The position numbers were made by a program, and so were the translations under genes. DNA of 58,209 nt from an uncultured Chiayiivirga sp. (GTDB taxonomy: Bacteria > Pseudomonadota > Gammaproteobacteria > Xanthomonadales > Xanthomonadaceae). How positions within the stretch are numbered: the stretch's first letter is position 1; each line of letters starts with the position of its first letter. The stretch is taken from the NCBI GenBank assembly GCA_934525595.1, contig CAKSZJ010000020.1, positions 1 to 58,209 of the forward strand, written 5' to 3'. Of this stretch, positions 1,191 to 52,818 are shown one piece after another. Under the pieces are notes generated by a model. It saw only the letters and a list, made by a program, of their open reading frames with translations, made no database searches and had not been told where the DNA came from.

Positions 1191-1198
1191 TGGCCGTT

Positions 1199-1504
1199 TC
1201 AGGCGGCCAGCCGGTGCACGTTGTCCAGCGTGCCGGCCAGTTTGCGTTCGGTGGTCTTGAGGTCGTAATCGGTTTGCAGGCCCATCCAGAGTTGTGGCGA
1301 CTGGCCGAAGGCGCGCCCGAAGCGCAACGCAAGATCGGCAGTGACCGGGCGTGTTTCACGAACGACATGCGAAATGCGCATCGGAGATACACCAATGGCA
1401 CGCGCCAGTTCTGCCTGGCTCATGCCGCGATCTTCGAGAATCTCCCGCAGCAGTTCTCCGGGATGGATGGTGGGAAGTCCGTTGACGGTGGCAGGAATGG
1501 ACAT
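1199..1504 (-). CDS. higA: HigA-family antitoxin (XRE helix-turn-helix)
   Basis: This 101-residue protein opens with the HPGELLREILEDRGMSQ stretch typical of HigA/VapI antitoxins. A helix-turn-helix (MSQAELARAIGVSPMRISHV) follows, and the C-terminal tail runs through the usual LWMGLQTDYDL motif. It is the second gene of a toxin-first pair, 12 bases after higB. HigA proteins bind and neutralise the HigB RNase and repress their own promoter. The likely binding site is the palindrome at 1807-1825. It is convergent with the methyltransferase gene, whose stop is 8 bases away. Confidence 0.92.
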   Translation of the reverse strand: MSIPATVNGLPTIHPGELLREILEDRGMSQAELARAIGVSPMRISHVVRETRPVTADLALRFGRAFGQSPQLWMGLQTDYDLKTTERKLAGTLDNVHRLAA

Positions 1505-1516
1505 GGCGGGTGCTCC

Positions 1517-1798
1517 TCAGTGGTAATCGACGATTTCGACATCGAAGGCGTCGCCGTTCTCGAACCGGAAACAAAGACGCCATTGGTCGTTGACCCGCAC
1601 GCTCCACTGACCTTCCCGGTCGCCGGTCAGAAGTTCGAGGCGGTTGGACAGCGGTTCGCGCAGGTCGTCCGGCGAAGTCGCCAGACTCAGGTACTTCAGG
1701 CGAGCAAGCGCCCGTCGGACGATGTCCTGGGGAAGCCTTCGCGTCTTGCCGGTGGCAAACAGCCGCTCGGTTTCCCTGTCGGCGAAGCTGCGGATCAT
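1517..1798 (-). CDS. higB: HigB-family toxin (RelE superfamily mRNA interferase)
   Basis: A 93-residue protein starting MIRSFADRETERLF and ending with WRLCFRFENGDAFDVEIVDYH-type residues, the standard signature of HigB/RelE-fold toxins (ribosome-dependent mRNA cleavage). I use the ATG at 1798 because the protein then begins at the conserved family N-terminus. The frame stays open further upstream, but only through the palindromic operator. A promoter can be read immediately upstream (1805-1833), and its expected start point falls on the ATG itself, so the mRNA may be leaderless. The gene is first in a higBA operon and divergent from res with only 46 bases between the start codons. Confidence 0.92.
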   Translation of the reverse strand: MIRSFADRETERLFATGKTRRLPQDIVRRALARLKYLSLATSPDDLREPLSNRLELLTGDREGQWSVRVNDQWRLCFRFENGDAFDVEIVDYH

Positions 1799-1804
1799 GG
1801 CGGC

Positions 1805-1833
1805 ATCGTAAACATGATGTTTACGGTTTGCAA
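1805..1833 (-). promoter_or_regulatory. Predicted higBA promoter
   Basis: On the minus strand TTGCAA (1833-1828) and TACGAT (1810-1805) are separated by exactly 17 bases, a plausible sigma-70 pair (4/6 matches to each consensus hexamer). The predicted start point, 6-7 bases after the -10 element, coincides with the higB ATG at 1798. The spacer is filled by the palindrome at 1807-1825, so repressor binding there would block polymerase. Confidence 0.5.
1807..1825. promoter_or_regulatory. Palindromic operator, probable HigA site between higB and res
   Basis: Perfect inverted repeat CGTAAACA-TGA-TGTTTACG: two 8-base arms with a 3-base spacer. It is AT-rich against the GC-rich surroundings and lies in the 46-base gap between the divergent higB and res start codons. 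Position, symmetry and neighbourhood fit the autoregulatory operator of an XRE antitoxin. Binding by HigA is an inference. Because the site lies 20 bases upstream of the res ATG, it could also affect res transcription. Confidence 0.7.
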
Positions 1834-1844
1834 GGCGGCACGCC

Positions 1845-4838: not shown

Positions 4839-6602
4839 TTACGGGTTTTCGTCTCCTTGCCCGGCCAATGAACGCAGGTGGGCGGAGAGGCGTTGCAGAT
4901 TGTCCTGCGTGCCGGTGATGGCGTTGCGTGCCGTGGGTGACAGGGTTTGCAGGGCGAGGTCGCGCAGGTGCCGGCTGCGGGTTTGCCAGTCGGCGTGCAT
5001 GGCTTGGGCTTGCGTGGCGGCGTGCTGGCGTTCGGCGTGCTGTGGCAGGCCGTAGCCGGGCATGTCACCGAGCAGGCTGGCGGGACGGGCGAGGGTGCCT
5101 TCCAGCGCCAGCGCATCGTCCAGCGCGGCCCGCATGGGATCTTGGCGATGCGCGTCCAGGCGACGCTTGAGCACATCGCGCGCGCGCAGTTCGGCGCGGC
5201 GCAGGGCGGCTTCTTCCAACACCAGCAGGGCGGCGCTGGCGCGCAGGTCGCCGGCGGTCATCCACGGGGCGCGCTTTTCGGGCGGGAGATCCAGCCAGCC
5301 GCGCATCGAGTGCGCGGGCAGCGCGAGCGAGCTGCGGGCGATGTCGAACAGTTCGGCGTAGTGCCGGTCGGCGGGCGGGAAGTAGTAGCCCAGACGAACC
5401 GCATCCCCGCGTGCCAGTGGCGCGGCGTCCGCGATGCCGGCATGTTCCAGCCGGCGCAGCAGCGATGTCGGTGCGACGGCGGCGATGGGCTCGTGCGCCA
5501 GGCGCGGTACGCCGTCGTGCAGCAGCTTGAAGGTTTCGCTGGCGCAGTTGTTGCCGAGGAAGGTGTAGCGGCCGTCGTAGCTCCAGTGCAGCTGCGCGGC
5601 GCGTTCGACGAGGCTGGCCTTTTCCGCGTCCGAAAGGTTCAGCGGCACCGAGCGCAGGCCGCGCAGTTCGATGGCGGTATATTCCTCGATGACCTGATCG
5701 AGCGGCAGCACGAACAGGCGGGAGGGATAGCGCCCGGTAAGGCCGCGCCAGCCGGAAACCTGCACGTCGTCGACGAAGGCGCGGAACGAGAGCACGCGGT
5801 GGTGTTGCAGATCGAAACGACAGTCCGGCCCCGGCGCGCGGCCGGGCGCGCAGATCACCAGGCGCAGCATGCTGTGACCCCAGCGGCTCATCGCGGCGTC
5901 GGTGGGTTCGGCCAGGAGGTATTCGACGCTGTGGATGCGGGCTGGATCGAGCGCTTCCAGGGCCGATTCACCGGCCGGAACGAGAAAGGGCAGGTGCGCT
6001 GCGCAGGTTGGTGATGCGGCATGGCGCGGCGTGCCGACGCGCGCCGCGAGGAAATCGAACAGCGCGGGACGGCGGCAGGCGTAGTCGGGATCGCGCAGGA
6101 AATGTTCGATGTTGACGGCGAGGAACTCGCGCGGCGAGGTCAGTTCGTAGGCGTCCGGCGAGCGGTCGCGCATGCGGTTCCGGGTGCGCAGGCCGAAGCG
6201 GCGCGGGCGCAGCTGCCAGCCGGCCAGATCGAGCAGGCGTGGCTCGCGCGAGAGCCCGGCGCGGCGGTCGAAGGCGTGCGCCAGTTCGTGCAGCAGGGCG
6301 TCGAGAGCGGAGGGGCCGCCGTCGTGCAGCAGAGTGCGCGCCAGGAAGAGGTGCCGGCCGCGCAGGCGACCGTGGACGGCGGCAGGCAGGTCGTCGCGAA
6401 AGGCGAGCGTCAGCGCCGGCAGGCGCTCGATCAGCGGTGCGGGAAGCAGCGAATCGGCCTGTTCGATCAGGCGTTGCGCGGCCGTCTGCTCGTCGGGCGT
6501 GAGCGTGGCGGTGTCCAGTCGGGGCGGCCATGCCCAGGCCTGCAGGGCGACGAGGGTGAGCAGCGCGCCGACGATGCCGCGCCGCAGCACCGGCCCGCTC
6601 AC
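4839..6602 (-). CDS. DUF4105 envelope protein with HELAH zinc-peptidase-like motif
   Basis: 587 residues beginning with a hydrophobic signal segment (about residues 8-24, ending AWA). The N-terminal third contains HELAH at 105-109 in an LLHELAHAFDRR context, resembling an HExxH metal site. The central part has the DUF4105 features, including SRWGHSMLRL and TFLGNNCASETF, whose GH...NNC pattern resembles a papain-like/NlpC-type fold. The tail is helical and Arg/Leu-rich. The start is a GTG at 6602 that overlaps the stop of the upstream DUF2388 gene by 4 bases (GTGA), so the two are translationally coupled. I recall DUF4105 and DUF2388 genes being paired in Pseudomonas too. Likely located in the periplasm or outer envelope; enzymatic activity is not established. 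Confidence 0.8.
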   Translation of the reverse strand: MSGPVLRRGIVGALLTLVALQAWAWPPRLDTATLTPDEQTAAQRLIEQADSLLPAPLIERLPALTLAFRDDLPAAVHGRLRGRHLFLARTLLHDGGPSALDALLHELAHAFDRRAGLSREPRLLDLAGWQLRPRRFGLRTRNRMRDRSPDAYELTSPREFLAVNIEHFLRDPDYACRRPALFDFLAARVGTPRHAASPTCAAHLPFLVPAGESALEALDPARIHSVEYLLAEPTDAAMSRWGHSMLRLVICAPGRAPGPDCRFDLQHHRVLSFRAFVDDVQVSGWRGLTGRYPSRLFVLPLDQVIEEYTAIELRGLRSVPLNLSDAEKASLVERAAQLHWSYDGRYTFLGNNCASETFKLLHDGVPRLAHEPIAAVAPTSLLRRLEHAGIADAAPLARGDAVRLGYYFPPADRHYAELFDIARSSLALPAHSMRGWLDLPPEKRAPWMTAGDLRASAALLVLEEAALRRAELRARDVLKRRLDAHRQDPMRAALDDALALEGTLARPASLLGDMPGYGLPQHAERQHAATQAQAMHADWQTRSRHLRDLALQTLSPTARNAITGTQDNLQRLSAHLRSLAGQGDENP

Positions 6603-6925
6603 TTCGCCAGGATTGCCTTTGCCAGCGCCAGGTCGCTGGCGCGCGCATCGACGCCAGGCTGCGCGCGCAGGTGGCGCAGCGCCGCCTCCAGACGCAGGCC
6701 GCGGATGCGACCTTGCGTGGCAACAAAGGCTGCGGCATCGCGTCGCGCCTCCAGGATCAGCTTGTCGTCACCCGAGGTGCTGCCGCTGGTGCCCGAGGTG
6801 CCGTTGGAGCTGGCGCCGGCGGATGTGCCGGCAGAGGTGCCCGCAAAGCTGCCGGCGATGGCCGGGCAGGCGGCGGCGAGCGCCAGGCCGAGCAGGGCGG
6901 TGATGCAGGTGAAGCGCAGTGACAT
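6599..6925 (-). CDS. DUF2388 small secreted protein
   Basis: 108 residues with a clear signal peptide (cleavage likely after PAIAG), then a Gly/Ser/Thr-rich linker, then the DUF2388 core: SGDDKLILEARRDAAAFVAT, RLEAAL and a closing LALAKAILAK. The usual family length is about 100 residues, so the gene is complete. It is first in a two-gene minus-strand operon with the DUF4105 gene, overlapping by 4 bases. The function of the family is unknown; export and co-expression with DUF4105 suggest a periplasmic partner. Confidence 0.85.
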   Translation of the reverse strand: MSLRFTCITALLGLALAAACPAIAGSFAGTSAGTSAGASSNGTSGTSGSTSGDDKLILEARRDAAAFVATQGRIRGLRLEAALRHLRAQPGVDARASDLALAKAILAK

Positions 6926-7670: not shown

Positions 7671-9005
7671 TTGCGCTGGGACGTGGACATCGGGGTGGCG
7701 GGGGCCGGCTTTTCCGGGCTGGCGTTCTGCACGGCGCTGCTGACGCGCGACGCTGCGCTGCGCGTGGCGCAGTTCGGCGAGGCCGGACAGTTCGGTACCG
7801 GCCTCGCCTACGGCCCGGCCGCCGGTCGCTTCCTGCTCAACTCGCGTGCCGACCAGATGGGCCTCGACGCTGCGGAGCCCGGCGGATTCGCCGACTGGCT
7901 GGGGCTGGAAGGCGAGGCGCGGCGGAGCTTCCAGCCGCGCGCCGTCTTCGGGCGCTACCTCAAGGCGTGCAGCGAGCAGCTGGCGCGCACGCACGGCGAT
8001 CGGCTGCGGCAGGTGCCGCTGAAGCTGGTCGCCGCGGAGCGGCACGGCGACGGCTGGCGCGTGCGCGACGAGGCCGGGAGCGTGCTCGCGTGCCGCACCC
8101 TGGTGCTGGCCTGCGGCGCCCTGCCGGCCCGGCCGCTGCCGCCGGTCGTCGCGGCGGGGCTGGAGGGCGACCGCGACGTGATCGTCGATGCGCTGATTCC
8201 CGGCGCGCTTCGGCACGTCGATCCGGACGGCCAGGTGCTGATCGCCGGTACCGGCCCGACCATGATCGACGCCGCGCTCGGCCTGCTGGAGCAGGGCCAT
8301 CGCGGCCGCATCCTGGCCTTTTCACGCCGCGGACTGATTCCGCTGCCGCACCTGGAATCCCCGGCGCCCGCGTTGCCGCCGCCGCCGATGGCACGGGTCG
8401 ACGCGCGCGGCGGGCTTGCCATGCTGCGACACCTGGCGATCGAACAGGGCGACTGGCGCCCTGCCATGGATGGCCTGCGCGGCCAGTTCGCCGAGCTGTG
8501 GCGGCGCGCCGATGCGCCGCAGCGGCGGCGCTTCCTGCGTCACGTTGCGGCGTACTGGTCGGTGCACCGGCATCGTCTTCCGCCGCAGCAGTGGCAGCGG
8601 CTGGAGGCGGCGATCGCGCGCGGGCAGCTGCAGATCCACGCCGCGCGTCTGGAGGCCGTGGCCCGCGATGCGGACGGTTTGAGGGTCACCCTGCTGCCGC
8701 GCTGCGGGAATGCGCGGAACCTCGCCGCGGCGGCGCTGGTGCAGGCGACCGGCTTCGGCAGCCGGCTGGCCGACAACCCGCTGCTGGCCACGCTGCTCGA
8801 CGGCGGCTGGCTGCGACCCGATCCGCTCGCGCTCGGCGCCGATGTGGATGCCGCAGGCCGTGCCCTGGACCACGCGGGGCGGCCGTTGGAATCGCTGTAC
8901 CTCCTCGGTGCGCTGACCCGCGGGGAAGCCTGGGAAATCACCGCCGTGCCGGAGCTGCGCCAGGCCGCCGACCGCCTCGGCGCGCACCTTCTTGCTTCGA
9001 CCTGA
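7671..9005 (+). CDS. FAD/NAD(P)-binding protein (NAD_binding_9-like)
   Basis: About 444 residues. The N-terminus has a Rossmann dinucleotide fingerprint VAGAGFSG (residues 9-16) and the LLNSRADQMGL segment seen in FAD/NAD(P)-binding proteins of the NAD_binding_9 type. A second nucleotide-binding loop VLIAGTGPTMID lies near residues 188-199. The C-terminus has YLLGALTRGEAWEITAVPELR, typical of this family. The start is uncertain: TTG at 7671 gives the full fold, and GTG at 7683 is an alternative; no strong ribosome site is visible. It follows the broken cysteine dioxygenase by 15 bases, so it may act in oxidation of the same sulfur compound. That link is inference. Confidence 0.75.
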   Translation: MRWDVDIGVAGAGFSGLAFCTALLTRDAALRVAQFGEAGQFGTGLAYGPAAGRFLLNSRADQMGLDAAEPGGFADWLGLEGEARRSFQPRAVFGRYLKACSEQLARTHGDRLRQVPLKLVAAERHGDGWRVRDEAGSVLACRTLVLACGALPARPLPPVVAAGLEGDRDVIVDALIPGALRHVDPDGQVLIAGTGPTMIDAALGLLEQGHRGRILAFSRRGLIPLPHLESPAPALPPPPMARVDARGGLAMLRHLAIEQGDWRPAMDGLRGQFAELWRRADAPQRRRFLRHVAAYWSVHRHRLPPQQWQRLEAAIARGQLQIHAARLEAVARDADGLRVTLLPRCGNARNLAAAALVQATGFGSRLADNPLLATLLDGGWLRPDPLALGADVDAAGRALDHAGRPLESLYLLGALTRGEAWEITAVPELRQAADRLGAHLLAST

Positions 9006-9059
9006 GCCGCGACCGCGCGGCGCCGGATCCGCGCGCATGGGCATCCGCTGACGTAGGGG

Positions 9060-9076
9060 TGCGACACTCGGTCGCA
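9060..9076. promoter_or_regulatory. Candidate operator upstream of the copper receptor gene
   Basis: Inverted repeat TGCGAC-ACTCG-GTCGCA (6-base arms, 5-base spacer), 63 bases upstream of the chosen start codon. A -10-like TTTAAT lies at 9117-9122. The spacing places the palindrome just upstream of where a -35 element would sit, a usual position for an activator. The binding protein is unknown. Confidence 0.4.
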
Positions 9077-9138
9077 TCGTGCCGGGAGTCTCACCTTCCT
9101 ACCATTTGCACAGCGTTTTAATGGACTGGAAGCGAGCG

Positions 9139-11307
9139 ATGGACGCGTGTTGCAAGACCGCCGTGCGGCGGAATCGGGTGTGGGCGGTGCTGCCGCTGAT
9201 GGTGATGCCGCTGCCGGTGTGGGCCGCCGAGGCGAGCCTCGACGCCCGCGCCCTTGACGCCATCGTGGTGACCGCGCAGGCACCGGACGACGGCGTGGCC
9301 TGGGAAACCGATCCCAAGCTGCCGCGCCAGCCGGTGCCGGCCAGCGACGGTGCCGATTACCTCAAGACCATCCCCGGCTTCACCGCGATCCGCAACGGCG
9401 GCAGCAACGGCGACCCGGTGCTGCGCGGCATGTTCGGCTCGCGCCTGAATCTTCTTTCCAACAACGGCAGCATGCCCGGCGCCTGCCCGGCGCGGATGGA
9501 CAACCCGATGTCCTACGTGGCACCGGAAACCTTCGACCGGCTGGTGGTGGTGAAAGGCCCGCAGACGGTGCTCTGGGGGCCGGGAGCCTCGGCCGGCACG
9601 GTGCGCTTCGAGCGCGACGTGCCGCGCTTCGTGAATGAATCCGCGCGCGTTTCCGGCAGCGTGCTGGCCGGTTCGCACGGGCGCCGCGATGCCGTGGTGG
9701 ATGCCACCGCCGGCATGGCGCAGGGCTATGTGCGATTGAGCGGCAACACCTCGCGCGCCGATGACTACGAAGCCGGCGACGGCCAGCGCGTGCCGTCGCA
9801 GTGGGACAAGTGGAATGCCGACGTGGCCTTCGGCTGGACCCCGGACGAGGACACCCTGATCGAGCTGGGCCTCGGGCGTGGCGATGGCGAGGCGCGCTAT
9901 GCCGGCCGCGGCATGGATGGTTCGATGTTCGACCGCGACTCGGCTTCGCTGCGTTTCGAAAAGTCCGGCTTCGGTGGCGTGCTGCGGCGGGTCGAGGCGA
10001 GCGCGTACCGGAATCAGGTCGATCACGTGATGGACAACTACACCCTGCGCGATCCGAATCCGATGAGCATGATGCCGATGCCTATGGCCGCCGATGTGGA
10101 TCGTCTCACCCGGGGCGGGCGCGCGGCGCTGGAGTTCGCGGGGGCCGATTGGCAGGTCACCACCGGCGTGGATGCGCAGAACAGCCGGCTCCGCAGCCGC
10201 AGCAGCATGGGCCGCGGCGATGCGTATCGCCAGCAGCCCTGGGCGGACGATGCCGACCTGCGCAATCGCGGCCTGTTCGCCGAAGCGGTGCTGGATCGCG
10301 GACCGCATTCGCGCTGGATCGCCGGCCTGCGCGCCGACCGCGCCAGCGCGCGCGACCTGCGCATGGCCGCCGGCTCCGGCCATCACCACATGGATGCCGG
10401 TGCAAAGCAGGGCGGCCACGACGATCATGGCGACCCCGGCCACGCCGTTGAGCGGCAGCGCAGGCAAACCCTCGGCAGCGGCTTTCTGCGGCACGAATGG
10501 CGCGGCGCGCATGGGTTCACCGGCTATGCCGGCGTCGGCCACGCGCGCCGCATGCCCGACTACTGGGAGCTGTTCTCGCCCGAGGCCGGACCGATGGGCT
10601 CGGAAAATGCGTTCGAGGGCGTGCAGCCGGAGCGCACCACCCAGCTCGACGTCGGCCTCAACTACCGCTCGCAGCGCCTGGATGCCTGGGTGAGCGCGTA
10701 CTACGGCCGCATCGACGACTACATCCTGTTCCACTACGCCGCGGCCGGGCACGGGCACGGCGGGCACGGTCATGCCGGGCAGAAGCACGGCGGCAACGAT
10801 CACGACATGCCGCCGGGCAATCGCGCGATGAACGTGGACGCGGGAATCCGCGGGGCCGAGGCCGGTGTCCAGTACCGCCCGGTGGATCCGCTGAGCCTCG
10901 GGGCCACGTTGGCCTACGCCTGGGGCGAGAACCGCGACGCCGGCACCGCGCTGCCGCAGATGCCGCCGCTGGAAGTGCGCATGAGCGCCGCCTGGCAGGC
11001 GGAAGGCTGGAATCTCGGCCTGCTGTGGCGCGTGGTCGATGCGCAGGACCGCGTGGCCGAAGGGCAGGGCAACGTGGTGGGGCAGGACATTTCCGCCAGC
11101 AAGGGCTTTGGCACCCTGTCGCTCAACGGCAGCCTGCGCCTGGGCGACCTGTGGCGGCTGTCGGCCGGCATCGACAACCTGTTCGACCGCGCCTACAGCG
11201 AGCACCTGAATCTCGCCGGCAGCGCCGATTTCGGCTATCCGGCCGATCCGGTGCGCATCCTCGAACCGGGTCGCACCCTCTGGCTGAAACTGGACTTCAG
11301 CTATTGA
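9139..11307 (+). CDS. TonB-dependent copper receptor, OprC-like
   Basis: 722 residues from ATG 9139, chosen because GGAAG at 9128-9132 gives a good ribosome site and the protein then starts with a compact signal peptide (cleavage near WAA, residue 30). GTG 9079 and ATG 9121 are in-frame alternatives. A TonB-box-like AIVVTAQ and a plug domain follow. The plug contains CPARM (C116-M120), matching the CxxxM copper site described for Pseudomonas OprC, with a further Met at 124. External loops are metal-rich: NPMSMMPMPM at about 307-316, a His/Asp run at about 414-436 and another at about 537-564. The barrel ends with the expected terminal aromatic. Predicted role: outer-membrane uptake of copper using TonB energy. 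First gene of a tight cluster; the next starts 13 bases later. Confidence 0.88.
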   Translation: MDACCKTAVRRNRVWAVLPLMVMPLPVWAAEASLDARALDAIVVTAQAPDDGVAWETDPKLPRQPVPASDGADYLKTIPGFTAIRNGGSNGDPVLRGMFGSRLNLLSNNGSMPGACPARMDNPMSYVAPETFDRLVVVKGPQTVLWGPGASAGTVRFERDVPRFVNESARVSGSVLAGSHGRRDAVVDATAGMAQGYVRLSGNTSRADDYEAGDGQRVPSQWDKWNADVAFGWTPDEDTLIELGLGRGDGEARYAGRGMDGSMFDRDSASLRFEKSGFGGVLRRVEASAYRNQVDHVMDNYTLRDPNPMSMMPMPMAADVDRLTRGGRAALEFAGADWQVTTGVDAQNSRLRSRSSMGRGDAYRQQPWADDADLRNRGLFAEAVLDRGPHSRWIAGLRADRASARDLRMAAGSGHHHMDAGAKQGGHDDHGDPGHAVERQRRQTLGSGFLRHEWRGAHGFTGYAGVGHARRMPDYWELFSPEAGPMGSENAFEGVQPERTTQLDVGLNYRSQRLDAWVSAYYGRIDDYILFHYAAAGHGHGGHGHAGQKHGGNDHDMPPGNRAMNVDAGIRGAEAGVQYRPVDPLSLGATLAYAWGENRDAGTALPQMPPLEVRMSAAWQAEGWNLGLLWRVVDAQDRVAEGQGNVVGQDISASKGFGTLSLNGSLRLGDLWRLSAGIDNLFDRAYSEHLNLAGSADFGYPADPVRILEPGRTLWLKLDFSY

Positions 11308-11320
11308 TTGGGAGGTCGGC

Positions 11321-13462
11321 ATGTTGATCCATTTGCGGGCGACGCCGCGCGCGCCGCGGCTGTCGGCGGTCGTCGCGGTCGCACTGCTGTTTTCCGCCCC
11401 CGCTCTCGCGGACGCGGTTGCCGATGCCGACGTCGAGCGCGACAAGGCCGTCGTTCTCGATGAAGTCGAGGTGCGTGGCGTCGGGGACGCCCTCGAAATC
11501 CAGCGCGCGCTGACGCCGGGAGCCGTTGCCATCGTGGATGGCGAATCCTTCTATCGGCGTACGGTCAACCACCTGTCCGACGCATTGCGCTACGTGCCCG
11601 GCGTGTGGATGGAGAGCGGCACCGGTGGTGATGCCGTCTGGTTCTCCAGCCGCGGATCCAATCTGGACGCCACCGGCTATGACGGCAACGGTATCAAGCT
11701 GCTTCAGGACGGCCTGCCGGTGACGACCGCGGATGGAAACAACCACAACCGGGCGCTCGATCCGATGTCGGCACGACACCTCGTGGTCGCGCGCGGCGCC
11801 AATGTCCTGACCTACGGCGCCAGCAGTCTGGGCGGCGCGATCGATATCACCTCGCCCACCGCGCGCAACGGTGCCGGCAGCCAGGCGTTCTTCCTCGCCG
11901 GCAGCCACGGTCTGCGCAACGGGCGGGTGACGGCGGGCGGAGTAACTGGCGATTTCGACGCGCAGGTGACGCTGGATGCGAAGGAGCGCGATGGCTACCG
12001 CGAGCACAGCCGCCAGGAGCGCTCGGGCGTTTACGCCAACGGCGGCTGGCGGCCGTCCGGCGACTTCGACCTGCGCGTGTTCGCGACCTACATCGACAGC
12101 GACGAGGCGTTGGCCGGTCCGCTGACCCGCGCGCAGTTCGACGCTGACCCCTACCAGGCGCAGGCGACTGCGGTCACCGGGAACTTCCAGCTCAACGTGC
12201 GCACCAGCCGGCTGGCCGCCAAGGGCGACTGGCGCATCGACGACGACCGCCGTTTCGAGTTCGGCCTGTCCTGGGACGACCAGCATCTCTATCACCCCAT
12301 CGTCGACAAGGTCATGGTGGACTTCGACGGCCCCGGCCCGATGGAGCCGGTGGAGGTGTTCAGCCTGCTCAAGAACACCGACCAGCGCACGATGGCCGGC
12401 ATGGCGCGCTACAGCACCCGCCTCGGCAGCCACGACGTGCTGGCCGGCATCAATCTGGCCGACACGCACGAAACCGGCGGCCTTTACCGCAATGACGGCG
12501 GTCGCCGCAACGGGCTGTCCACCCTCGTGGACAACCGTTCCGGAAGCGTGGAGCTTTTCCTTGTGGACCGCTGGGGTTTCGCGCCCGACTGGACGCTGGT
12601 CTATGGCGCGCAGGGCGTGTTCACCCGTCGCGATGTGCGCAGCGTCACCGTCGCCACCGGCGCGTTGCAGAGCCCGAAGGGCGATTATTCTTCGATCAAC
12701 CCGCGCCTGGGCGTGATCCGTGCGCTTGGTGCGGACAGCGAGGTTTACGGCAGCCTGAGCCGGCTGTACGAGGCGCCCACCACGTTTGAGCTGGAGGACG
12801 ACGTGCGCGGCGGCGAGTCCACGCTCGATGCCATGCGCGGAGGCGTGGCCGAGTTCGGCGTGCGTGGCGCGTCCGGGGCAGGGGGCGGCGCCGCGCGCTG
12901 GCACTGGGACGTGTCGGCCTACTACGCGCGGATCCGCAACGAGATCCTGTCCGTGGACGATCCCGGCGCGCCTGGCACCAGCCTCTCGGCCAACATCGAT
13001 CGCACCGTCCACGCCGGCATCGAGGCCCTGTTTGGCGCGAGCGTGCCGCTGGGCGGCGCGCATCGCGTCGAACCGCTGGTCAGCGCGACGTACAACGCGT
13101 TCTCGTTCGATGGCGATGCGGTCTACGGCGACAACGACCTGCCGGCTGCGCCGGACTACGTGGTGCGCGGCGAGCTGATGTATCGCCACGACGGCGGTTT
13201 CCATGTCGGCCCGACCTTCGACCTGGTCGGCTCGCGCCACGCGGACTTCAGCAACGCCTACGCGGTGGGTTCGTACCGCCTGCTGGGCCTGCGCGCAGGC
13301 GTGGAGCGCGGGCGCTGGTCGGCGTTCGGCGAAGTGCGCAACGCGCTGGGCGAGAAGTACGTCGGCCTGCTGACCGTGCGCGACCGCGCAGGTGCGGACG
13401 ATGCCCTGCTGCAGGCCGGCGAGCCGCGCTCGGTCTATCTCGGCCTGCGGCTGAAGTTCTGA
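11321..13462 (+). CDS. TonB-dependent outer-membrane receptor, substrate unknown
   Basis: 713 residues with a signal peptide (about 1-31) and a strong GGGAGG ribosome site. The plug shows DEVEVRG, LRYVPGVWM and FSSRGSN; the TonB box is probably VLDEVEVRG. A 22-stranded barrel is implied by length and by the terminal LGLRLKF ending in Phe. Unlike the preceding receptor it has no His- or Met-rich loops, so it may bring in a chelated metal or another ligand. It lies between an OprC-like copper receptor (13 bases upstream) and a PepSY membrane protein (2 bases downstream), which suggests work in the same uptake pathway. The ligand cannot be read from the sequence. Confidence 0.85.
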   Translation: MLIHLRATPRAPRLSAVVAVALLFSAPALADAVADADVERDKAVVLDEVEVRGVGDALEIQRALTPGAVAIVDGESFYRRTVNHLSDALRYVPGVWMESGTGGDAVWFSSRGSNLDATGYDGNGIKLLQDGLPVTTADGNNHNRALDPMSARHLVVARGANVLTYGASSLGGAIDITSPTARNGAGSQAFFLAGSHGLRNGRVTAGGVTGDFDAQVTLDAKERDGYREHSRQERSGVYANGGWRPSGDFDLRVFATYIDSDEALAGPLTRAQFDADPYQAQATAVTGNFQLNVRTSRLAAKGDWRIDDDRRFEFGLSWDDQHLYHPIVDKVMVDFDGPGPMEPVEVFSLLKNTDQRTMAGMARYSTRLGSHDVLAGINLADTHETGGLYRNDGGRRNGLSTLVDNRSGSVELFLVDRWGFAPDWTLVYGAQGVFTRRDVRSVTVATGALQSPKGDYSSINPRLGVIRALGADSEVYGSLSRLYEAPTTFELEDDVRGGESTLDAMRGGVAEFGVRGASGAGGGAARWHWDVSAYYARIRNEILSVDDPGAPGTSLSANIDRTVHAGIEALFGASVPLGGAHRVEPLVSATYNAFSFDGDAVYGDNDLPAAPDYVVRGELMYRHDGGFHVGPTFDLVGSRHADFSNAYAVGSYRLLGLRAGVERGRWSAFGEVRNALGEKYVGLLTVRDRAGADDALLQAGEPRSVYLGLRLKF

Positions 13463-13464
13463 CG

Positions 13465-14754
13465 ATGGCCGGTCAGCGCGATGCCGCCAGCGGGCCGACG
13501 GTGCAAGGCGACCTGCGCCGTCGCGCCTGGCGCTGGCATTTCCTTGCCGCGCTGCTGGTGATCCCCTTCGTGCTCTGGCAGTCGGCCACGGGCGTGCTGT
13601 ACCTGTGGTCGGAACGCTGGATGGATCATCGTCACGCCGAGCTGCGCTTCGTCGAGGTGGCCGGTGACGTGGTGCCGCTCGATGCGCAGGTGCAGGCGGC
13701 GCGCGCGTTCCATGCAGGCCGGCAGGTCGGTGCCGTGCATGTGCCGGTCGATCCTTCGCGCAGCACGCAGGTCATGTTCAGCGACGACCGCGGCCTGCCG
13801 TTGGCGGCGTTCGTCGACCCGTATCGCGGCGTGCTGCTCGGGACCCTGGAAGGCAGCGCGTGGCCGGTGGGATGGAGCCGCAGCCTGCACGGCGGCTGGC
13901 CGCTGGGCGACGCCGGCAGCTGGCTGCTGGAGGTCGGCGCCTGCTGGACGATCGTGATGCTGCTTACGGGGCTGTACCTGTGGTGGCCGCGCAACGGGCG
14001 CGGCGTGCGCGCATTGCTGCCGCGCCTGCGCCGCGGCGGGCGAACGCTCCTGCGCGATCTGCACGCCTGCACGGCGGTGTGGTTCGCGCTGCTGATCGCG
14101 CTGTTCCTGTGCACGGCGATGCCGTGGACGAGTTTCTGGGGCGGCAAGGTCTTGCAGCCCGCGCTGCAGGTGCTGCAGCAGCAGGCCCCGCGCGCAGCGG
14201 GATTCGCGCCGGTGTTCGCCGGCGGTGCGCAGGGCGGGGCGAGTCTGCAAGCGATGCTCGACGCGGCCCGCGCGGACGGCCTGGATGGCGACCTGCTGTT
14301 CCTGATGGTGGACGGTCCGCCCGGCTCGGCGGTTTCCGTGCGCGAGGAGAAGGCGCGCTCGTCGCAGGAGCGATATCTGCTGATGGATCGCGGCGATGGT
14401 GGGGTGCTGGAGCGCGCCGACTGGAGCCGGTTTCCGGTCATGGCGAGGGCGGTCGCGACGGGCGTGGATATCCACGAGGCCAGCTATTTCGGGCGCGTCG
14501 GGCCGTGGATCAATACCGGCTTTGCGCTCGCCCTGGTCTGGCTGTGCGTCACCGGTGCGCTGTCGTGGTGGAAGCGCAGGCCGGCGGGGTCGCCGGGCGT
14601 GCCGCCGCGCGCCCGCGGACGCTGGCCGGGCTGGCTGCGGATCGTCGCGGCCGCCTTGTTCCTGCTGCTGCCGCTGCTGGCCCTGTCGGCCGCGGCGCTG
14701 TGGCTGGCCGAGTCCCTGTGGGCATGGAGGCGGCCGCACGGGAGGCGGGCATGA
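13465..14754 (+). CDS. PepSY-associated membrane protein
   Basis: 429 residues with a PepSY_TM arrangement. There is an N-terminal membrane helix after RRRAWRWHFLAALLVIPFVL, a second near WTIVMLLTGLYLWWP, a pair near LHACTAVWFALLIALFLC, and two more at the C-terminus around FALALVWLCVTGALSWW and LFLLLPLLALSAAALWL. Conserved His residues accompany the helices (RWHF, SLHGGWP, DLHA, DIHEAS). The family is commonly found beside siderophore or metal receptors and includes proteins proposed to reduce imported metal at the inner membrane. Two bases separate it from the TonB receptor, and its TGA overlaps the ATG of a mini-frame leading to the copper chaperone. A role in copper handling is inferred from context. 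Confidence 0.82.
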   Translation: MAGQRDAASGPTVQGDLRRRAWRWHFLAALLVIPFVLWQSATGVLYLWSERWMDHRHAELRFVEVAGDVVPLDAQVQAARAFHAGRQVGAVHVPVDPSRSTQVMFSDDRGLPLAAFVDPYRGVLLGTLEGSAWPVGWSRSLHGGWPLGDAGSWLLEVGACWTIVMLLTGLYLWWPRNGRGVRALLPRLRRGGRTLLRDLHACTAVWFALLIALFLCTAMPWTSFWGGKVLQPALQVLQQQAPRAAGFAPVFAGGAQGGASLQAMLDAARADGLDGDLLFLMVDGPPGSAVSVREEKARSSQERYLLMDRGDGGVLERADWSRFPVMARAVATGVDIHEASYFGRVGPWINTGFALALVWLCVTGALSWWKRRPAGSPGVPPRARGRWPGWLRIVAAALFLLLPLLALSAAALWLAESLWAWRRPHGRRA

Positions 14755-14795
14755 GCGCTGCGGCAGGCGGGTGGGAATCGGAGATGAATCGATGA
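14751..14795 (+). CDS. 14-residue mini-frame coupling two copper genes
   Basis: ATG at 14751 overlaps the PepSY-gene stop as ATGA, and its own TGA (14793-14795) overlaps the ATG of the copper chaperone, again as ATGA. The product would be MSAAAGGWESEMNR. It has no domain and is probably not a functional protein. The double overlap would let ribosomes leaving the PepSY gene re-initiate and arrive at the chaperone start. It could also be coincidence, because a GGAG site at about 14780 serves the chaperone directly. Confidence 0.3.
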   Translation: MSAAAGGWESEMNR

Positions 14796-15274
14796 CGATG
14801 AAATGGTTGGCATTGGCGCTGGCGCTTGTCGGACTGGCGGCGTGCGGCCGGGTCGAGCATCACGCGCGGATCGGCGAGCTGGAAGTGACGCTGCCGTGGT
14901 CGCGCGAGGTTTCTCCGCATGCACCGGTGGCGGCGGGGTTCCTGTCGATCCGCAATCGCGGGGAGGCCGACGACCGGCTCGTTGCCGTGCGCAGCGACGC
15001 CGTCGAGCGCGTGGAAATCCACGAACTGCGGCACGAGGACGGCATGGTGCGCATGCGCGAACTCGCCGAAGGGTTGCCGCTGCCCGGCGGTGCCACGGTG
15101 GAACTCAAGCCGGGTGGCCACCACCTGATGTTCTTCGCTCCGGGCAATGCCTTCACGGCAGGCCGCCGGGTCAAGGCGACGCTGGTGTTCGCCGCGGCGG
15201 GGGAGCTGGAGGTCATGTTCGACGTCAGGTTGGTCGCGGCCGACAGCGACAGGCCGGCACGGCCGCATCATTGA
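14792..15274 (+). CDS. PCu(A)C-family periplasmic copper chaperone (lipoprotein)
   Basis: 160 residues. The signal sequence ends in GLAAC, making Cys18 a probable lipid-anchored residue. The copper site of the family is visible: H77, then M88 after ten residues, then HHLM giving H111 and M113. The M-to-H interval is one residue longer than the usual 21. The surrounding FLSIRN, VELKPGGHH and MFF elements are typical of PCu(A)C. Such proteins bind Cu(I) and deliver it to the CuA centre of cytochrome oxidase. The gene follows the PepSY membrane protein with overlapping start/stop signals, completing a route from outer membrane to respiratory-enzyme assembly. Confidence 0.9.
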   Translation: MTMKWLALALALVGLAACGRVEHHARIGELEVTLPWSREVSPHAPVAAGFLSIRNRGEADDRLVAVRSDAVERVEIHELRHEDGMVRMRELAEGLPLPGGATVELKPGGHHLMFFAPGNAFTAGRRVKATLVFAAAGELEVMFDVRLVAADSDRPARPHH

Positions 15275-15358
15275 GGGCGTGGTAACTCCCGCCGGCAATC
15301 GCTTTTTCCGCTCACCGGCGCCGATGGCAGCGACGCATCCCGGTGGCATGCTGTCGGC

Positions 15359-16579
15359 ATGAGTACCGATCGCACTTCGCTTATCGCCACGCTCGTCACG
15401 CTGCGCTGGCTCTCGGTGGCCGGGCAGGCGGTAGCGGTGGCCGCGGTGGTGTTCGCGCTGGGCGTGCCGCTGCCGCTCGTGCCGATGGCGCTGGCGATCG
15501 CGCTGCTGGCCGCGTTCAATGTCTATGCGATGCGGCGCGCGCGGCGCGCTGACGAGCCGGCCGCCGCCGAAGTGTTCGCACACATCGCGGTCGACGTTGC
15601 CGAGCTGGCTTTCCTGATCGGCTGCAGCGGCGGGCCGGCCAATCCCTTCACCTCGCTGTTCCTGGTGCCGATCGCCTTCGCCGCGCTGGCGCTGCCGCGT
15701 CGCTGGATCCTTGCGGCGGCGCTGCTGTGCGGGCTCGGCTACGCGCTTGCGGCGGCGTTCGGCCGGCCGTTGCCGCACGTGCACGGCGTGGCGATGGACA
15801 GCTTCGACCTGCACCTGTGGGGCATGGCCGCCAATTTCGTGATTTCCGCCGCGGTGTTTTCCGGCATCCTCGCGCGCATGGCGCGCCAGCGGCGTGTGCG
15901 CGAGGCGGAGCTCGCGCGGCTGCGCGAACGCTTCGCGCGCGACGAGGGCATCCTCGCGCTCGCCACCCACGCCGCCTCGGTCGCGCACGAACTCAATACC
16001 CCGCTGGCAACGATGCTGATGGCGCTGGACGAACTGGACGCGGAGGACCTGCCCGATGCGCTCGCGGACGATCTCGCGCTGATCCACGCGCTGGCCGAAA
16101 CCTGCCGTGATCGGGTGCGCGAGCTGGCGCGCGCGGCGCAGCGCGGCGAGGACATCGATCCCGAGCAGGTGGTATCGCGCTGGCAGCTGCTGCGGCCCGC
16201 GGTGGTGCTGGAGCGCGAGGCGACGCTGCCTGCCGGCCTGCGCGTGGACGCCGCGGTCGGCCACCTGCTGCGCGTGCTGCTCGACAACGCCGCCGACGCC
16301 GGTGCCGCCGCGGGCGACGCGCGGGTCACGCTCGGGCTGCGGTGCGAGGACGGCTGGCTGCTGGGCCGGGTGCGCGATCGCGGCTTCGGCATCGACTCCG
16401 AACGCGCGCTGCGCGACGATCCGCGCGGCAGCGCCAAGCCGGATGGTCTGGGCGTGGGCCTGGCGCTGTCGCGCGCGGCGCTGGAGCGCATCGGTGGCGA
16501 AATGCGTCTGGATCCGGCGGAAGGTGGCGGCACCTGCGTGCGTCTGCGCGTGCCTCTACGCGATGCGGAGCCGGGCTGA
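15359..16579 (+). CDS. RegB/PrrB-type redox sensor histidine kinase
   Basis: 406 residues with six predicted membrane segments in the first about 175. The loop GGPANPF at 91-97 matches the GGXXNPF quinone-binding motif of RegB. The phospho-acceptor is H210 in VAHELNTPLAT. C249 (ETCRD) lies 39 residues later, close to the position of RegB Cys265, the redox-active cysteine whose spacing in RegB is 40. The ATP-binding domain shows DNAADAG, RDRGFGI and GLGVGLALSRA. RegB kinases sense quinone pool and redox state and phosphorylate RegA. The stop codon overlaps the response-regulator start by one base. It lies 84 bases after the copper chaperone on the same strand. Confidence 0.9.
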   Translation: MSTDRTSLIATLVTLRWLSVAGQAVAVAAVVFALGVPLPLVPMALAIALLAAFNVYAMRRARRADEPAAAEVFAHIAVDVAELAFLIGCSGGPANPFTSLFLVPIAFAALALPRRWILAAALLCGLGYALAAAFGRPLPHVHGVAMDSFDLHLWGMAANFVISAAVFSGILARMARQRRVREAELARLRERFARDEGILALATHAASVAHELNTPLATMLMALDELDAEDLPDALADDLALIHALAETCRDRVRELARAAQRGEDIDPEQVVSRWQLLRPAVVLEREATLPAGLRVDAAVGHLLRVLLDNAADAGAAAGDARVTLGLRCEDGWLLGRVRDRGFGIDSERALRDDPRGSAKPDGLGVGLALSRAALERIGGEMRLDPAEGGGTCVRLRVPLRDAEPG

Positions 16580-17112
16580 TGCACGGCATCGTGCTGGATG
16601 ACGATGAGCCCTATCGCCGCGTGCTGGCGCGTGCGCTGGAGCGCCGCGGCCTGACGGTGTATCCGGCGGCGGAGGTTGCCGAGGCGCTGCGCCTGGCGCG
16701 CCAGCATGCCCCCGACTTCGCCCTGCTGGATCTCAAGCTGGCCGATGGCGACGGCAGCGGGCTGGAGCTGATCGCACCCTTGCGCAACGCCGTGCCCGGC
16801 ATGCGCATCGTGCTGGTAACCGGCTACGCCAGCGTGGCCACGGCGGTGGAGGCGATCAAGCGCGGTGCCGACGACTACCTGCCCAAACCGGCCTCGGTGG
16901 AGGCGATCCTGCGCGCGCTGCACGGCGAGGCGGTCGAGCACGTGCCCGAGCCGGTGGCGATGACGCCGCTGGCGCGGATCGAGTGGGAGCACATCCAGCA
17001 GGCGCTGGCGGAAACCGGCGGCAACATTTCCGCCACGGCACGCCTGCTCGGCATGCACCGGCGCTCGCTGCAGCGCAAGCTGGCCAAACGCCCGCCCGGC
17101 GAGGGCGTCTGA
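16579..17112 (+). CDS. RegA/PrrA/ActR-type response regulator
   Basis: 177 residues. The receiver domain has the acidic pair LDDD near 6-9, the phospho-acceptor D51 in LLDLKLADGDG, Thr in LVTGYAS and Lys in YLPKPAS. A short linker leads to a Fis-type helix-turn-helix, IEWEHIQQALAETGGNISAT, then RLLGMHRRSLQRKLAKR, which is the RegA signature. RegA regulators control respiration, terminal oxidases, nitrogen and carbon fixation genes according to redox state. Overlaps the sensor kinase gene by one base (TGATG), so the two are co-translated. Targets are unknown; the copper genes just upstream are obvious candidates. Confidence 0.92.
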   Translation: MHGIVLDDDEPYRRVLARALERRGLTVYPAAEVAEALRLARQHAPDFALLDLKLADGDGSGLELIAPLRNAVPGMRIVLVTGYASVATAVEAIKRGADDYLPKPASVEAILRALHGEAVEHVPEPVAMTPLARIEWEHIQQALAETGGNISATARLLGMHRRSLQRKLAKRPPGEGV

Positions 17113-17222
17113 GAAACGGGTGCCGGGCGCGCCGGTGCCGGCGTGCCACAATGCGCGGCATCGCGCCGCGCCGGTACCGGACACCTTCCATCCCGCCGCC
17201 AGCGGCGCGCCTGGAGCCCTTG

Positions 17223-18407
17223 ATGAAGCTGTCCACCCGCGCCCGGCGCATCGAACCCTTCTACGTGATGGAAGTCGGCAAGGCCGCCGCGCAGCTCGCG
17301 CGCGAGGTGGCGGGCGGCGACCGTCCGGTGATCGCGCTCAACATCGGCGAGCCGGACTTCACCGCGCCGGCGCAGGTGCGCGAAGCCGCCGCGCGGGCGA
17401 TCCGGGACGGCACCACGCAGTACAGCCCGGCGCTGGGCCTGCCGGCGCTGCGCGAGCGCATCGCCGCGTGGTACGGGCAGCGCTTCGGCGTGGAGGTGCC
17501 TGCTTCGCGCATCGTGGTGACCGCCGGCGCTTCGGCCGCACTGCACCTGATCTGCCTTGCGCTGATCGAGGCGGGCGACGAGGTGCTGATGGCTGATCCC
17601 GGTTACCCCTGCAACCGCCACTTCGTGCTGGCCGCCGAAGGCCGGCCGGTGCTGATCCCGGCCGGTGCGCAGGATCGCTACCAGCTCAGCGCCGGGAAGG
17701 TGCGCGCGCACTGGGGGCCGGCCACGCGCGGCGTGCTGCTGGCCTCGCCGTCCAATCCCACCGGCACCTCGATCGATCCGGAGGAGCTGCGCCGCATCCA
17801 CGCCTTCGTGCGCGAGCGCGGCGGCGTCACCCTGCTCGACGAGATCTATCTGGGCCTGAGTCACGACGCCGCGTTCGGTCGTACCGGGCTGGCGCTGGGC
17901 GGGGACCTCGTCAGCATCAACAGCTTCTCCAAGTACTTCAGCATGACCGGCTGGCGCCTGGGCTGGCTGGTGGTGCCCGAGCCGCTGGTAGCGGTTCTGG
18001 AGCGGCTCGCGCAGAACCTCTTCATCTGCCCCAGCGTCATCGCCCAGCACGCCGCGCTGGCCTGCTTCGAGCCCGAAAGCCTGGCCGAATACGAGCGTCG
18101 CCGCGCCGAGTTCCGCGCCCGTCGCGACTACTTCATCCCCGAGCTTCAGCGCCTCGGTTTCAGCGTGCCGGTGCAGCCCGATGGCGCGTTCTACGCCTGG
18201 GCCGACGCCTCGGCCTGGTTCGAGCGCCTGGGCGTCGGCAACAGCTGGGATTTCGTGTTCGAGGTGCTGCGCCGCAGCCACCTCGCCCTTACTCCGGGCC
18301 GCGATTTCGGTCAGGCCGAAACTGCCCGCTTCGTGCGATTCTCCACCGCCAATTCGATGGACGCCCTGCGCGAGGCGGTCGCGCGGCTGGAGGCGCTGGG
18401 AGGATAG
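17223..18407 (+). CDS. Class I/II PLP-dependent aminotransferase
   Basis: 394 residues of fold-type I aminotransferase, aspartate-aminotransferase branch. Motifs: NIGEPDF near the N-terminus, YSPALGLPALRERIA, SPSNPTGT, DEIYLGL, the PLP-lysine segment SFSKYFSMTGWRLGW, and the substrate-carboxylate Arg near VRFSTANS. ATG 17223 matches the family N-terminus; a longer GTG/ATG start upstream would overlap the response regulator in another frame. The substrate is not determined by sequence alone; glutamate/aspartate/aromatic specificity is possible. A 110-base gap separates it from the response regulator. Convergent with recG. Confidence 0.88.
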   Translation: MKLSTRARRIEPFYVMEVGKAAAQLAREVAGGDRPVIALNIGEPDFTAPAQVREAAARAIRDGTTQYSPALGLPALRERIAAWYGQRFGVEVPASRIVVTAGASAALHLICLALIEAGDEVLMADPGYPCNRHFVLAAEGRPVLIPAGAQDRYQLSAGKVRAHWGPATRGVLLASPSNPTGTSIDPEELRRIHAFVRERGGVTLLDEIYLGLSHDAAFGRTGLALGGDLVSINSFSKYFSMTGWRLGWLVVPEPLVAVLERLAQNLFICPSVIAQHAALACFEPESLAEYERRRAEFRARRDYFIPELQRLGFSVPVQPDGAFYAWADASAWFERLGVGNSWDFVFEVLRRSHLALTPGRDFGQAETARFVRFSTANSMDALREAVARLEALGG

Positions 18408-48955: not shown

Positions 48956-49130
48956 GGGCAGACCTCGGGCGGGAAAACGTCATGCTGACGGGTGTGCAAC
49001 CGGCTGGCCAGTGACTCCGGTCATGAATTGCGGCCTGATGCACGCTCCTTGGCCTTGTGTGAGACAGTTGGCAGATTTGGGCCGAGCCGCTAAGGTTTCC
49101 TTGCCGATTCACGTCCCTGCCATCCCGCCC

Positions 49131-52626: not shown

Positions 52627-52792
52627 GGGCGTGTGCCTGGATCCGCGAGGCGACCATTGTGCCGCAGGGGCGTTGAATACTCGCGATCCACGCCGTTCGC
52701 GGTGCATGTGAAGCCTTGGTCGCACGCTGCGGGAACGGTCCGGGCGGAGGGCGAAGGCGGCTGGAGTGGCGGGATTCTTGACGCCTTGTTTG

Positions 52793-52815: not shown

Positions 52816-52818
52816 AAT

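What the first reader, a model, noticed from the sequence alone, without database searches (positions are those of the whole stretch)
9139..17112. Copper-acquisition cluster joined to a RegBA-type redox switch
Six co-directional genes run from an OprC-like copper receptor through a second TonB receptor, a PepSY membrane protein and a PCu(A)C chaperone to a RegB/RegA pair. All gaps but one are under 15 bases; the exception is 84 bases before the kinase. The likely logic is that copper is imported, handled at the inner membrane and loaded into CuA of cytochrome oxidase. A sensor of quinone/redox state, possibly itself responding to oxidase status, adjusts it. I do not recall this linkage being described as a unit.
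Basis: partly seen in the sequence, partly recalled or inferred. Interest (0 to 1): 0.72.

Follow-up and report, generated by a model that had tools for sequence, protein, structure and literature searches.

The report
Copper-uptake operon wired to redox switch
A bacterial operon for taking up copper carries its own redox-sensing switch and a likely binding site for it; in relatives the same site precedes copper-uptake and respiration genes, and here it may stand in for the usual built-in copper sensor.

Summary
The six genes are real: OprC copper receptor, second TonB receptor, PepSY_TM protein, PCuAC chaperone, RegB-type kinase, RegA-type regulator (9139-17112). Corrections: the PepSY-PCuAC gap is 37 bases, and the second receptor is PqqU/YncD-like, not CrtA.

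New: a perfect palindrome, TGCGAC-N5-GTCGCA (9060-9076), lies 62 bases before oprC and occurs exactly once in the window (0.007 expected). In relatives with an orthologous RegB it precedes regB in 54 of 80 loci (at most one mismatch), against 0 of 21 for a paralogous pair. It precedes OprC-type genes in 20 of 25, against 0 of 4 in genomes lacking this RegB. There are 115 exact sites in 44 genomes with this RegB, 8 in 44 without. Some precede cydA, COX1, COX2-type and PCuAC genes. I read it as the RegA box.

Copper-type genes lie beside regBA in 20 of 80 loci, in several layouts. Orthologues of both receptors are often headed by CruR, a copper-sensing leader ORF; the window has none. All 10 CruR-less OprC genes proper carry the box.

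Binding and expression were not measured. Closest precedent: regB-senC-regA. A new variant of a known kind.

The parts
9060..9076 (.). Perfect palindrome TGCGAC-ACTCG-GTCGCA, proposed RegA box at the head of the operon
   Evidence: Only exact match in the window, 0.0067 expected; conserved before regB and oprC in relatives
9139..11307 (+). oprC: TonB-dependent copper receptor
   Evidence: TIGR01778 745 bits, cut-off 472; OprC structure 739 bits
11321..13462 (+). Second TonB-dependent receptor, PqqU/YncD-like, probably for copper
   Evidence: Plug and barrel; 212 bits to YncD, 59 to CrtA; orthologues headed by a CruR-like ORF in 10 of 10 loci and followed by PCuAC in 7 of 10
13465..14754 (+). 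PepSY_TM membrane protein, possible metal reductase
   Evidence: PF03929 180 bits; no PDB relative by sequence
14792..15274 (+). PCuAC-type periplasmic copper chaperone
   Evidence: PF04314 114 bits; H-X10-M-X22-H-X-M
15275..15358 (.). 84-base gap before the kinase gene: no terminator-like site and no palindrome
15359..16579 (+). regB-type sensor kinase
   Evidence: Best NCBIfam model ActS/PrrB/RegB, below cut-off; GGPANPF, His210, Cys249
16579..17112 (+). regA-type response regulator, overlaps the kinase stop by one base
   Evidence: Receiver and Fis-type HTH; best NCBIfam model ActR/PrrA/RegA, below cut-off; no cysteine (translation)

Best explanation
One transcription unit (or one with a further start in the 84-base gap) makes the route by which copper reaches the respiratory oxidases and also the RegBA-type switch that controls it. 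Two outer-membrane receptors bring copper in, the PepSY protein handles and perhaps reduces it, and PCuAC passes it on. RegB reads the quinone pool and a redox cysteine; RegA binds the palindrome 62 bases before oprC and sets transcription. Because oxidases oxidise quinol and need copper, poor oxidase activity (little oxygen or little copper) would leave the pool reduced, switch RegB on and raise copper supply: copper sensed through its use. Supported by sequence comparison: gene identities, the palindrome, its going together with this RegB, and its place before regB, oprC, some PCuAC and some oxidase genes in relatives. Inferred: that RegA binds it, the sign of regulation, the reductase step, delivery to CuA, and the feedback loop.
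For: Pattern fixed from the window, then found before regB in 54 of 80 class-1 loci with at most one mismatch (23 exact) against 0.30 and 0.02 in shuffles, and in 0 of 21 class-2 loci; before OprC-type genes in 20 of 25 against 0.15 in shuffles, and 0 of 4 in genomes without class-1 RegB; 115 exact sites in 44 class-1 genomes against 8 in 44 without, while a control palindrome gives 125 and 95. Oxidase genes among the neighbours of exact sites. Half-sites and spacing fit the RegR box GNGRCRTTNNGNCGC but for one base. Copper-type genes beside regBA in 20 of 80 loci; 5 of 62 PCuAC genes and 5 of 28 OprC matches lie beside regB where 0.12 and 0.05 would by chance.
Against: No binding or expression data. 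The window's own regB has no box of its own, and 26 of 80 class-1 regB genes have none with at most one mismatch. PCuAC has the box in only 5 of 30 loci read in class-1 genomes (against 0 of 30, Fisher p 0.052). 60 of 80 class-1 loci have no copper-type gene found beside regBA. Exact sites also precede genes with no evident tie, such as exonuclease VII and a starch-synthase-type gene, and 9 of 40 ORFs scanned had no family. Two class-1 genomes keep a CruR-headed second receptor without the box (L132, L136). The genomes are related, so counts are not independent.
Confidence: 0.7

Rival explanations
1. The palindrome belongs to another regulator that co-occurs with this RegB lineage and controls regBA, oxidases and copper genes; RegA is one of its targets, not its owner.
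For: Presence of the box only goes together with class-1 RegB; binding was not shown. Published RegA, PrrA and RegR motifs are degenerate and dissimilar (PMC5506826, passages).
Against: The half-sites and spacing fit the RegR box but for one base, the box lies before regB itself in 54 of 80 loci, and neighbours include oxidase genes, classical RegA targets (that they are classical targets is general knowledge, cydA also in PMC5359404 passages).
Confidence: 0.15
2. regBA lies beside the copper genes by chance or only shares a promoter with them; there is no functional tie.
For: 60 of 80 class-1 loci show no copper-type neighbour; the full order was seen nowhere else.
Against: PCuAC and OprC lie beside regB far more often than expected, and the box precedes oprC also where oprC is far from regBA.
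Confidence: 0.06
3. The second receptor and the PepSY protein serve PQQ or a ferric siderophore, so the operon is a mixed one and only OprC and PCuAC concern copper.
For: Nearest solved relatives of the receptor are YncD and the PQQ transporter; known PepSY_TM enzymes reduce ferric siderophores (PMC13038864 abstract); PQQ-domain dehydrogenase genes lie beside exact sites in G006 (L260, L262).
Against: 10 of 10 orthologous receptor loci have a CruR-like ORF at the head by motif (6 of the 10 put to Pfam, 6 match DUF2946) and 7 of 10 have PCuAC within 1 kb downstream. His325 is invariant in the 120 listed homologues and the aligned residue in YncD is not His.
Confidence: 0.12

Closest known systems
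regB-senC-regA of alphaproteobacteria (group 1 RegBA)
   Same: RegBA encoded with a periplasmic copper chaperone needed for oxidase assembly (PMC9147068, passages)
   Different: Here the chaperone is PCuAC, two outer-membrane receptors and a PepSY protein are included, no senC was found among the genes scanned beside it, and RegA lacks the cysteine of group 1 RegA
cruR-crtA-crpH operon of Bordetella pertussis
   Same: A TonB copper receptor followed by a PepSY_TM gene, serving heme-copper oxidases (PMC12914433 sections 4, 7, 11; PMC13038864 sections 20, 21, 23); PCuAC in a few such operons
   Different: The receptor is not CrtA, no CruR is present, and RegB is not mentioned in either paper
Copper-starvation operon with PcuB and PcuC of Bradyrhizobium japonicum; TccA and PccA of Caulobacter
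   Same: A TonB receptor and a PCuAC-type chaperone for oxidases (PMC12617631, passages)
   Different: RegB does not occur in that paper's main text; no redox regulator in the unit as described there
RegBA control of metal genes: RegR and copCAB; RegA and iron uptake
   Same: RegA-type regulators acting on metal-handling genes (PMC4064962; PMC13274454; PMC5359404; passages)
   Different: Those are copper homeostasis or iron uptake genes; outer-membrane copper import with a conserved box was not described in the passages seen

Membership tests
OprC copper receptors (TIGR01778) | Score above the curated cut-off | tested here: met
   745 bits, cut-off 472
OprC copper receptors (TIGR01778) | Copper-site Cys/Met residues (which residues form the site is recalled) | tested here: met
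   GACPxRMD and MMPMPMA stretches conserved in the alignment to 6fok
CrtA copper receptors | Sequence cluster of CrtA | tested here: not met
   59 bits to CrtA 9rvq against 212 to YncD
CrtA copper receptors | Ligand-site residues Y130, W265, E337, Q356, H358, R395 | not tested
   No residue-level alignment to CrtA was made
CrpH-type PepSY_TM proteins | PepSY_TM domain | tested here: met
   PF03929 180 bits, cut-off 28.8
CrpH-type PepSY_TM proteins | Membership of the CrpH sequence cluster | not tested
   No CrpH sequence was compared
PCuAC chaperones | PF04314 above cut-off | tested here: met
   114 bits, cut-off 29.4
PCuAC chaperones | H(M)X10MX21HXM (as quoted in PMC12617631) | tested here: inconclusive
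   H-X10-M-X22-H-X-M, one residue longer
RegB/PrrB/ActS kinases | GGXXNPF, H-box and conserved cytosolic Cys (PMC8191878, passages) | tested here: met
   GGPANPF from 91, His210, Cys249
RegB/PrrB/ActS kinases | NCBIfam NF033792 cut-off | tested here: not met
   162 bits, cut-off 350, though the best of the models; hence RegB-type
RegA/PrrA/ActR regulators | NCBIfam NF033791 cut-off | tested here: not met
   168 bits, cut-off 250, though the best of the models; hence RegA-type
Group 1 RegA (copper-promoted dimer) | Conserved Cys156 | tested here: not met
   The protein has no cysteine (translation)
Operon regulated by RegA | RegA binds its promoter | not testable with these tools
   Box conservation is indirect evidence
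CruR-controlled copper operons | DUF2946 leader ORF with CXXC and a RAPP-like end | tested here: not met
   None in the window by motif search; the space before oprC is 133 bases

The most novel reading that the evidence does not exclude
In this lineage a redox two-component system has taken over from a copper-sensing leader ORF as the control of copper import. Orthologues of both receptors are often headed by CruR, which reads copper itself. Where CruR is missing before an OprC gene proper, a RegA box is there (10 of 10, window included), and ten other genomes carry both. In the window the exchange looks complete: no CruR, RegA box at the head, regBA at the tail. The cell would then judge its copper supply by how well its oxidases keep the quinone pool oxidised, not by metal level.
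Probability: 0.35. Interest if true: 0.82.

Novelty: new variant of a known kind. Interest (0 to 1): 0.68.

Why it matters
How bacteria match copper import to oxidase demand is poorly known, and the import control described in the papers seen (CruR) reads copper itself. A conserved site before regB, oprC and some PCuAC and terminal-oxidase genes gives a concrete, testable case in which import is set by respiratory redox state. It also offers a natural series of promoters (CruR only, CruR plus box, box only) in which the two kinds of control can be compared, and a sharper candidate RegA site for this family than the degenerate published motifs quoted in PMC5506826.

Tried and rejected
CrtA membership of the second receptor: considered after the CrtA papers, rejected by profile scores. 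RegA as a copper-binding protein through Cys156: rejected, the protein has no cysteine. The PrrA motif YSCGGC(5)GWCRMA has no match in the window; the R. capsulatus motif SSGNVRDNHYSNCSS matches 238 times and says nothing. The RegR motif with one mismatch is no more frequent than in shuffles (17 against 19.5). A PDB relative of the PepSY protein: none by sequence. A sigma-70-like promoter in 8900-17300: none found. The TonB receptors called c31 beside some regBA genes score as siderophore-type (two scored) and were not counted as copper genes; this may be too strict, since in L053 one of them stands in the order exact box, DUF2946 ORF, receptor, PCuAC. Clustering of ORFs lost the kinase in 8 of 56 loci; counts therefore use the tblastn maps.

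What the counts leave out. Class 1 means a kinase hit below E 1e-50: 52 of 149 genomes plus the four genomes of L001-L004, so 56 loci, some cut short by contig ends; the 24 later loci are the best-scoring new ones of the 179 class-1 genomes and were read only 1.5 kb out. Class-2 loci: 21 read of 27 such hits listed; one of the 21 (L145) was fetched because a receptor lay there, and it is the one with copper genes. One search counts include duplicate loci and are superseded. The pattern search used 44 of the 56 class-1 genomes. OprC upstream regions were read for 25 of 28 matches, three of them OprC-like proteins of 31-34% identity; without these the count is 19 of 22. PCuAC upstream regions: 30 of 62 genes in class-1 genomes and 30 of 45 in the others, the best-scoring ones. 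Pfam on ORFs beside exact sites: 40 ORFs chosen for length and closeness, 9 without a family at 1e-6.
Full report
WHAT IS THERE. The window (70% G+C) holds six co-directional genes from 9139 to 17112: OprC copper receptor, far above its curated cut-off and close to the solved OprC; a second TonB receptor, a PepSY_TM protein and PCuAC; a kinase whose best model is ActS/PrrB/RegB and a regulator whose best model is ActR/PrrA/RegA, both below the curated cut-offs, hence RegBA-type. The kinase has GGPANPF, His210 and Cys249, the kind of landmarks listed for RegB in PMC8191878 (passages). Junctions are 13, 2, 37, 84 and -1 bases, so the statement that only one gap exceeds 15 bases is wrong. Upstream lie a cupin-type ORF (7213) and an FAD/NAD(P)-binding protein ending at 9005; downstream an aminotransferase (17223) and recG on the other strand.

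THE SECOND RECEPTOR. It looked at first like CrtA, the copper receptor followed in over 75% of loci by a PepSY_TM gene (PMC12914433, section 4). By profile it is not: 59 bits to CrtA's structure against 212 to YncD and 210 to the PQQ transporter. Orthologues of 60-73% identity occur in 10 of 247 genomes searched. Seven of those 10 loci have PCuAC within 1 kb downstream, and one, L130, has PepSY (70%), receptor (71%) and PCuAC (58%) together. All 10 have a CruR-like ORF at the head by motif, in L130 ahead of the PepSY gene; six of the 10 were put to Pfam and all six match DUF2946 above its cut-off. CruR is the copper-reading leader ORF of B. pertussis (PMC9426467, passages). His325 is invariant in the 120 listed homologues, the window's own included, and the residue aligned to it in YncD is not His. 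So it is probably a copper receptor of a subfamily of its own.

IS THE LINK TO RegBA CONSERVED? Class-1 RegB orthologues (kinase hits below E 1e-50) were found in 52 of 149 genomes and in the genomes of L001-L004, 56 loci in all. In 14 of 56 a copper-type gene lies within about 5 kb of the regB start: PCuAC in G005, G122, G142, G120, G020; OprC in G010 and G062; OprC-like proteins in G152, G072, G099 (two of the three scored, both below the OprC cut-off); a relative of the second receptor in G003, G020, G091, G117; PepSY in G120 (59%) and G002 (33%). In 24 further class-1 loci, read only 1.5 kb out, 6 have PCuAC right after regBA, convergent. That is 20 of 80, or 13 of 80 counting only PCuAC and OprC proper. 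The layouts differ: convergent after regBA, co-directional after it (L003), or upstream (L002, L083, L086, L089, L098). By chance the 62 PCuAC genes and 28 OprC matches of the 56 genomes would give 0.12 and 0.05 neighbours within 4 kb, against 5 and 5 (related genomes are not independent). The only PepSY hit above 41% identity in these 56 genomes is the one beside PCuAC and regBA in G120. A paralogous pair (class 2, about 33% identity) has copper genes in 1 of 21 loci, the one that was fetched for that reason. Many class-1 loci have recurring neighbours that look like housekeeping genes (ispG-like and pgi-like by my reading of translations) and no copper gene. The window's exact order was seen nowhere else, and no kinase listed is more than 55% identical to it.

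THE PALINDROME. The stretch before oprC holds TGCGAC-ACTCG-GTCGCA at 9060-9076, the only exact match to half-sites and spacing in 58 kb, 0.0067 expected; with two mismatches allowed the pattern is no more frequent than in shuffles (11 against 8.9). With the pattern fixed from the window I scanned relatives. Within 350 bases of class-1 regB: 23 of 80 exact and 54 of 80 with at most one mismatch, against 0.02 and 0.30 in shuffles; class-2 regB 0 of 21; the window's regB none. Within 700 bases of OprC-type genes in class-1 genomes: 20 of 25 (9 exact) against 0.15 in shuffles; 0 of 4 in genomes without class-1 RegB. Before PCuAC: 5 of 30 against 0 of 30 (Fisher p 0.052); further exact sites before PCuAC were seen in L297, L308 and L311. 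Whole genomes: 115 exact sites in 44 class-1 genomes (33 have one) and 8 in 44 genomes without class-1 RegB (7 have one), while a control palindrome gives 125 and 95. Among 40 ORFs scanned beside exact sites are cytochrome bd subunit I (L222, L257), a bd subunit II domain (L255), COX1 (L251), COX2 with COX_ARM (L247), PepSY_TM (L253), nine TonB receptors and two PQQ-domain dehydrogenases (L260, L262), but also genes with no evident tie such as exonuclease VII and a starch-synthase type, and 9 without a family. Half-sites and spacing fit the RegR box of B. japonicum but for one base. I conclude that it is the RegA box of this lineage; this is inference.

CruR VERSUS RegA BOX. Of the 25 OprC-type genes, 22 were matched by the plug pattern used to read their leaders. 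In ten the box is followed by a CruR-like ORF and then oprC (L199, L200, L201, L203, L204, L205, L206, L212, L213, L215); in the seven measured, the ORF has 135-155 residues and starts 34-61 bases after the box, and all seven match DUF2946. Three have the CruR-like ORF without the box (L202, L209, L211). Nine have the box and no CruR-like ORF (L051, L054, L207, L208, L210, L214, L216, L217, L218), as has the window: 10 of 10 CruR-less leaders of OprC proper carry the box. The three OprC-like genes fall outside: L083 has a box with one mismatch, L081 and L098 have none, and no CruR-like ORF was seen before them. In the four genomes without class-1 RegB, three oprC genes have a CruR-like ORF and no box (L313-L315); the fourth, L316, has no box and only a looser CruR-like match without Pfam support. 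For the second receptor and its relatives 18 of 20 loci have a CruR-like ORF; the receptor loci beside regBA that I checked (L003, L086, L088, L089) have none. Against a simple exchange: G191 and G238 have class-1 RegB and still a CruR-headed second receptor without the box (L136, L132); in G122 (L053) a c31-type receptor beside regBA has box, DUF2946 ORF and PCuAC together. The window has no CruR-like ORF by motif.

HOW IT MOST LIKELY WORKS. Copper enters through two receptors, is handled by the PepSY protein (its relative CrpH is speculated by its authors to be a copper reductase, PMC13038864, sections 20, 21 and 23) and is carried by PCuAC towards the oxidases. RegB activity is set by the quinone pool and by a cysteine (PMC9147068, passages). 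RegA acting at the head of the operon would tie import to respiratory state and, as regBA is at the tail, to its own level. In many relatives regB has its own box; in the window that place is empty and the box stands at the operon's head, as expected if regBA is driven from there. The sign of regulation is unknown.

WHAT IS KNOWN. Group 1 regBA is reported as invariably cotranscribed with senC (PMC9147068), so a tie of RegBA to copper delivery has a precedent. RegR acts on copCAB (PMC4064962); RegA on iron uptake in Methylomonas (PMC13274454) and R. capsulatus (PMC5359404); regBA lies with the rus and cta operons in iron-oxidising acidithiobacilli (PMC5506826). All of these were seen as passages only. 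In the library searched I found no paper tying RegBA to OprC, CruR or outer-membrane copper import (searches; most hits seen only as listings; subscription papers are mostly not held). The OprC paper PMC8610252 was seen only in a listing.

VERDICT. A real copper operon with its own regulator, a new variant of a known kind. The comparative case for redox control of copper import in this family is strong but indirect; the exchange of a copper sensor for a redox sensor is the boldest reading that the data allow and is not proven.

Noticed in passing
L145, L149-L168: A second, paralogous RegBA-type pair (kinase about 33% identical) in related genomes; all 21 read have GGxxNPF and a Cys 42 residues after the H-box His, and none has the palindrome before its kinase gene.
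   Followed up: partly
L222, L257, L255, L251, L247, L260, L262: Exact palindromes beside cytochrome bd, COX1 and COX2-type oxidase genes and PQQ-domain dehydrogenase genes: a predicted wider RegA regulon.
   Followed up: partly
L129-L139, L142-L148, L199-L215: DUF2946/CruR-like leader ORFs head many copper-receptor operons of this family; their ends read RGPP or QAPP more often than RAPP.
   Followed up: partly
L235 (G098), L226 (G099), L053 (G122): Siderophore-type TonB receptors beside regBA with exact palindromes before them, two copies in G098; in L053 with a DUF2946 ORF and PCuAC.
   Followed up: partly
window 14751-14795: A 14-codon ORF bridges the PepSY and PCuAC genes with start/stop overlaps at both ends; may be a coupling device or chance.
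   Followed up: no
window 6706-6722: A one-mismatch copy of the palindrome about 100 bases upstream of the minus-strand Lnb_N/DUF7844 gene (4842-6602); could be chance.
   Followed up: no
window 66-4799: A DNA methylase-type ORF and a ResIII-type ORF in one direction, like a restriction-modification unit.
   Followed up: no
L238, L268, L270, L276: Exact palindromes beside genes with no evident tie to respiration or copper (AMP-binding enzyme, HDOD-GGDEF, exonuclease VII, starch-synthase type).
   Followed up: no
window 48924-50528 and 52766-55159: An NtrC-type response regulator and a further TonB-dependent receptor elsewhere in the window.
   Followed up: no
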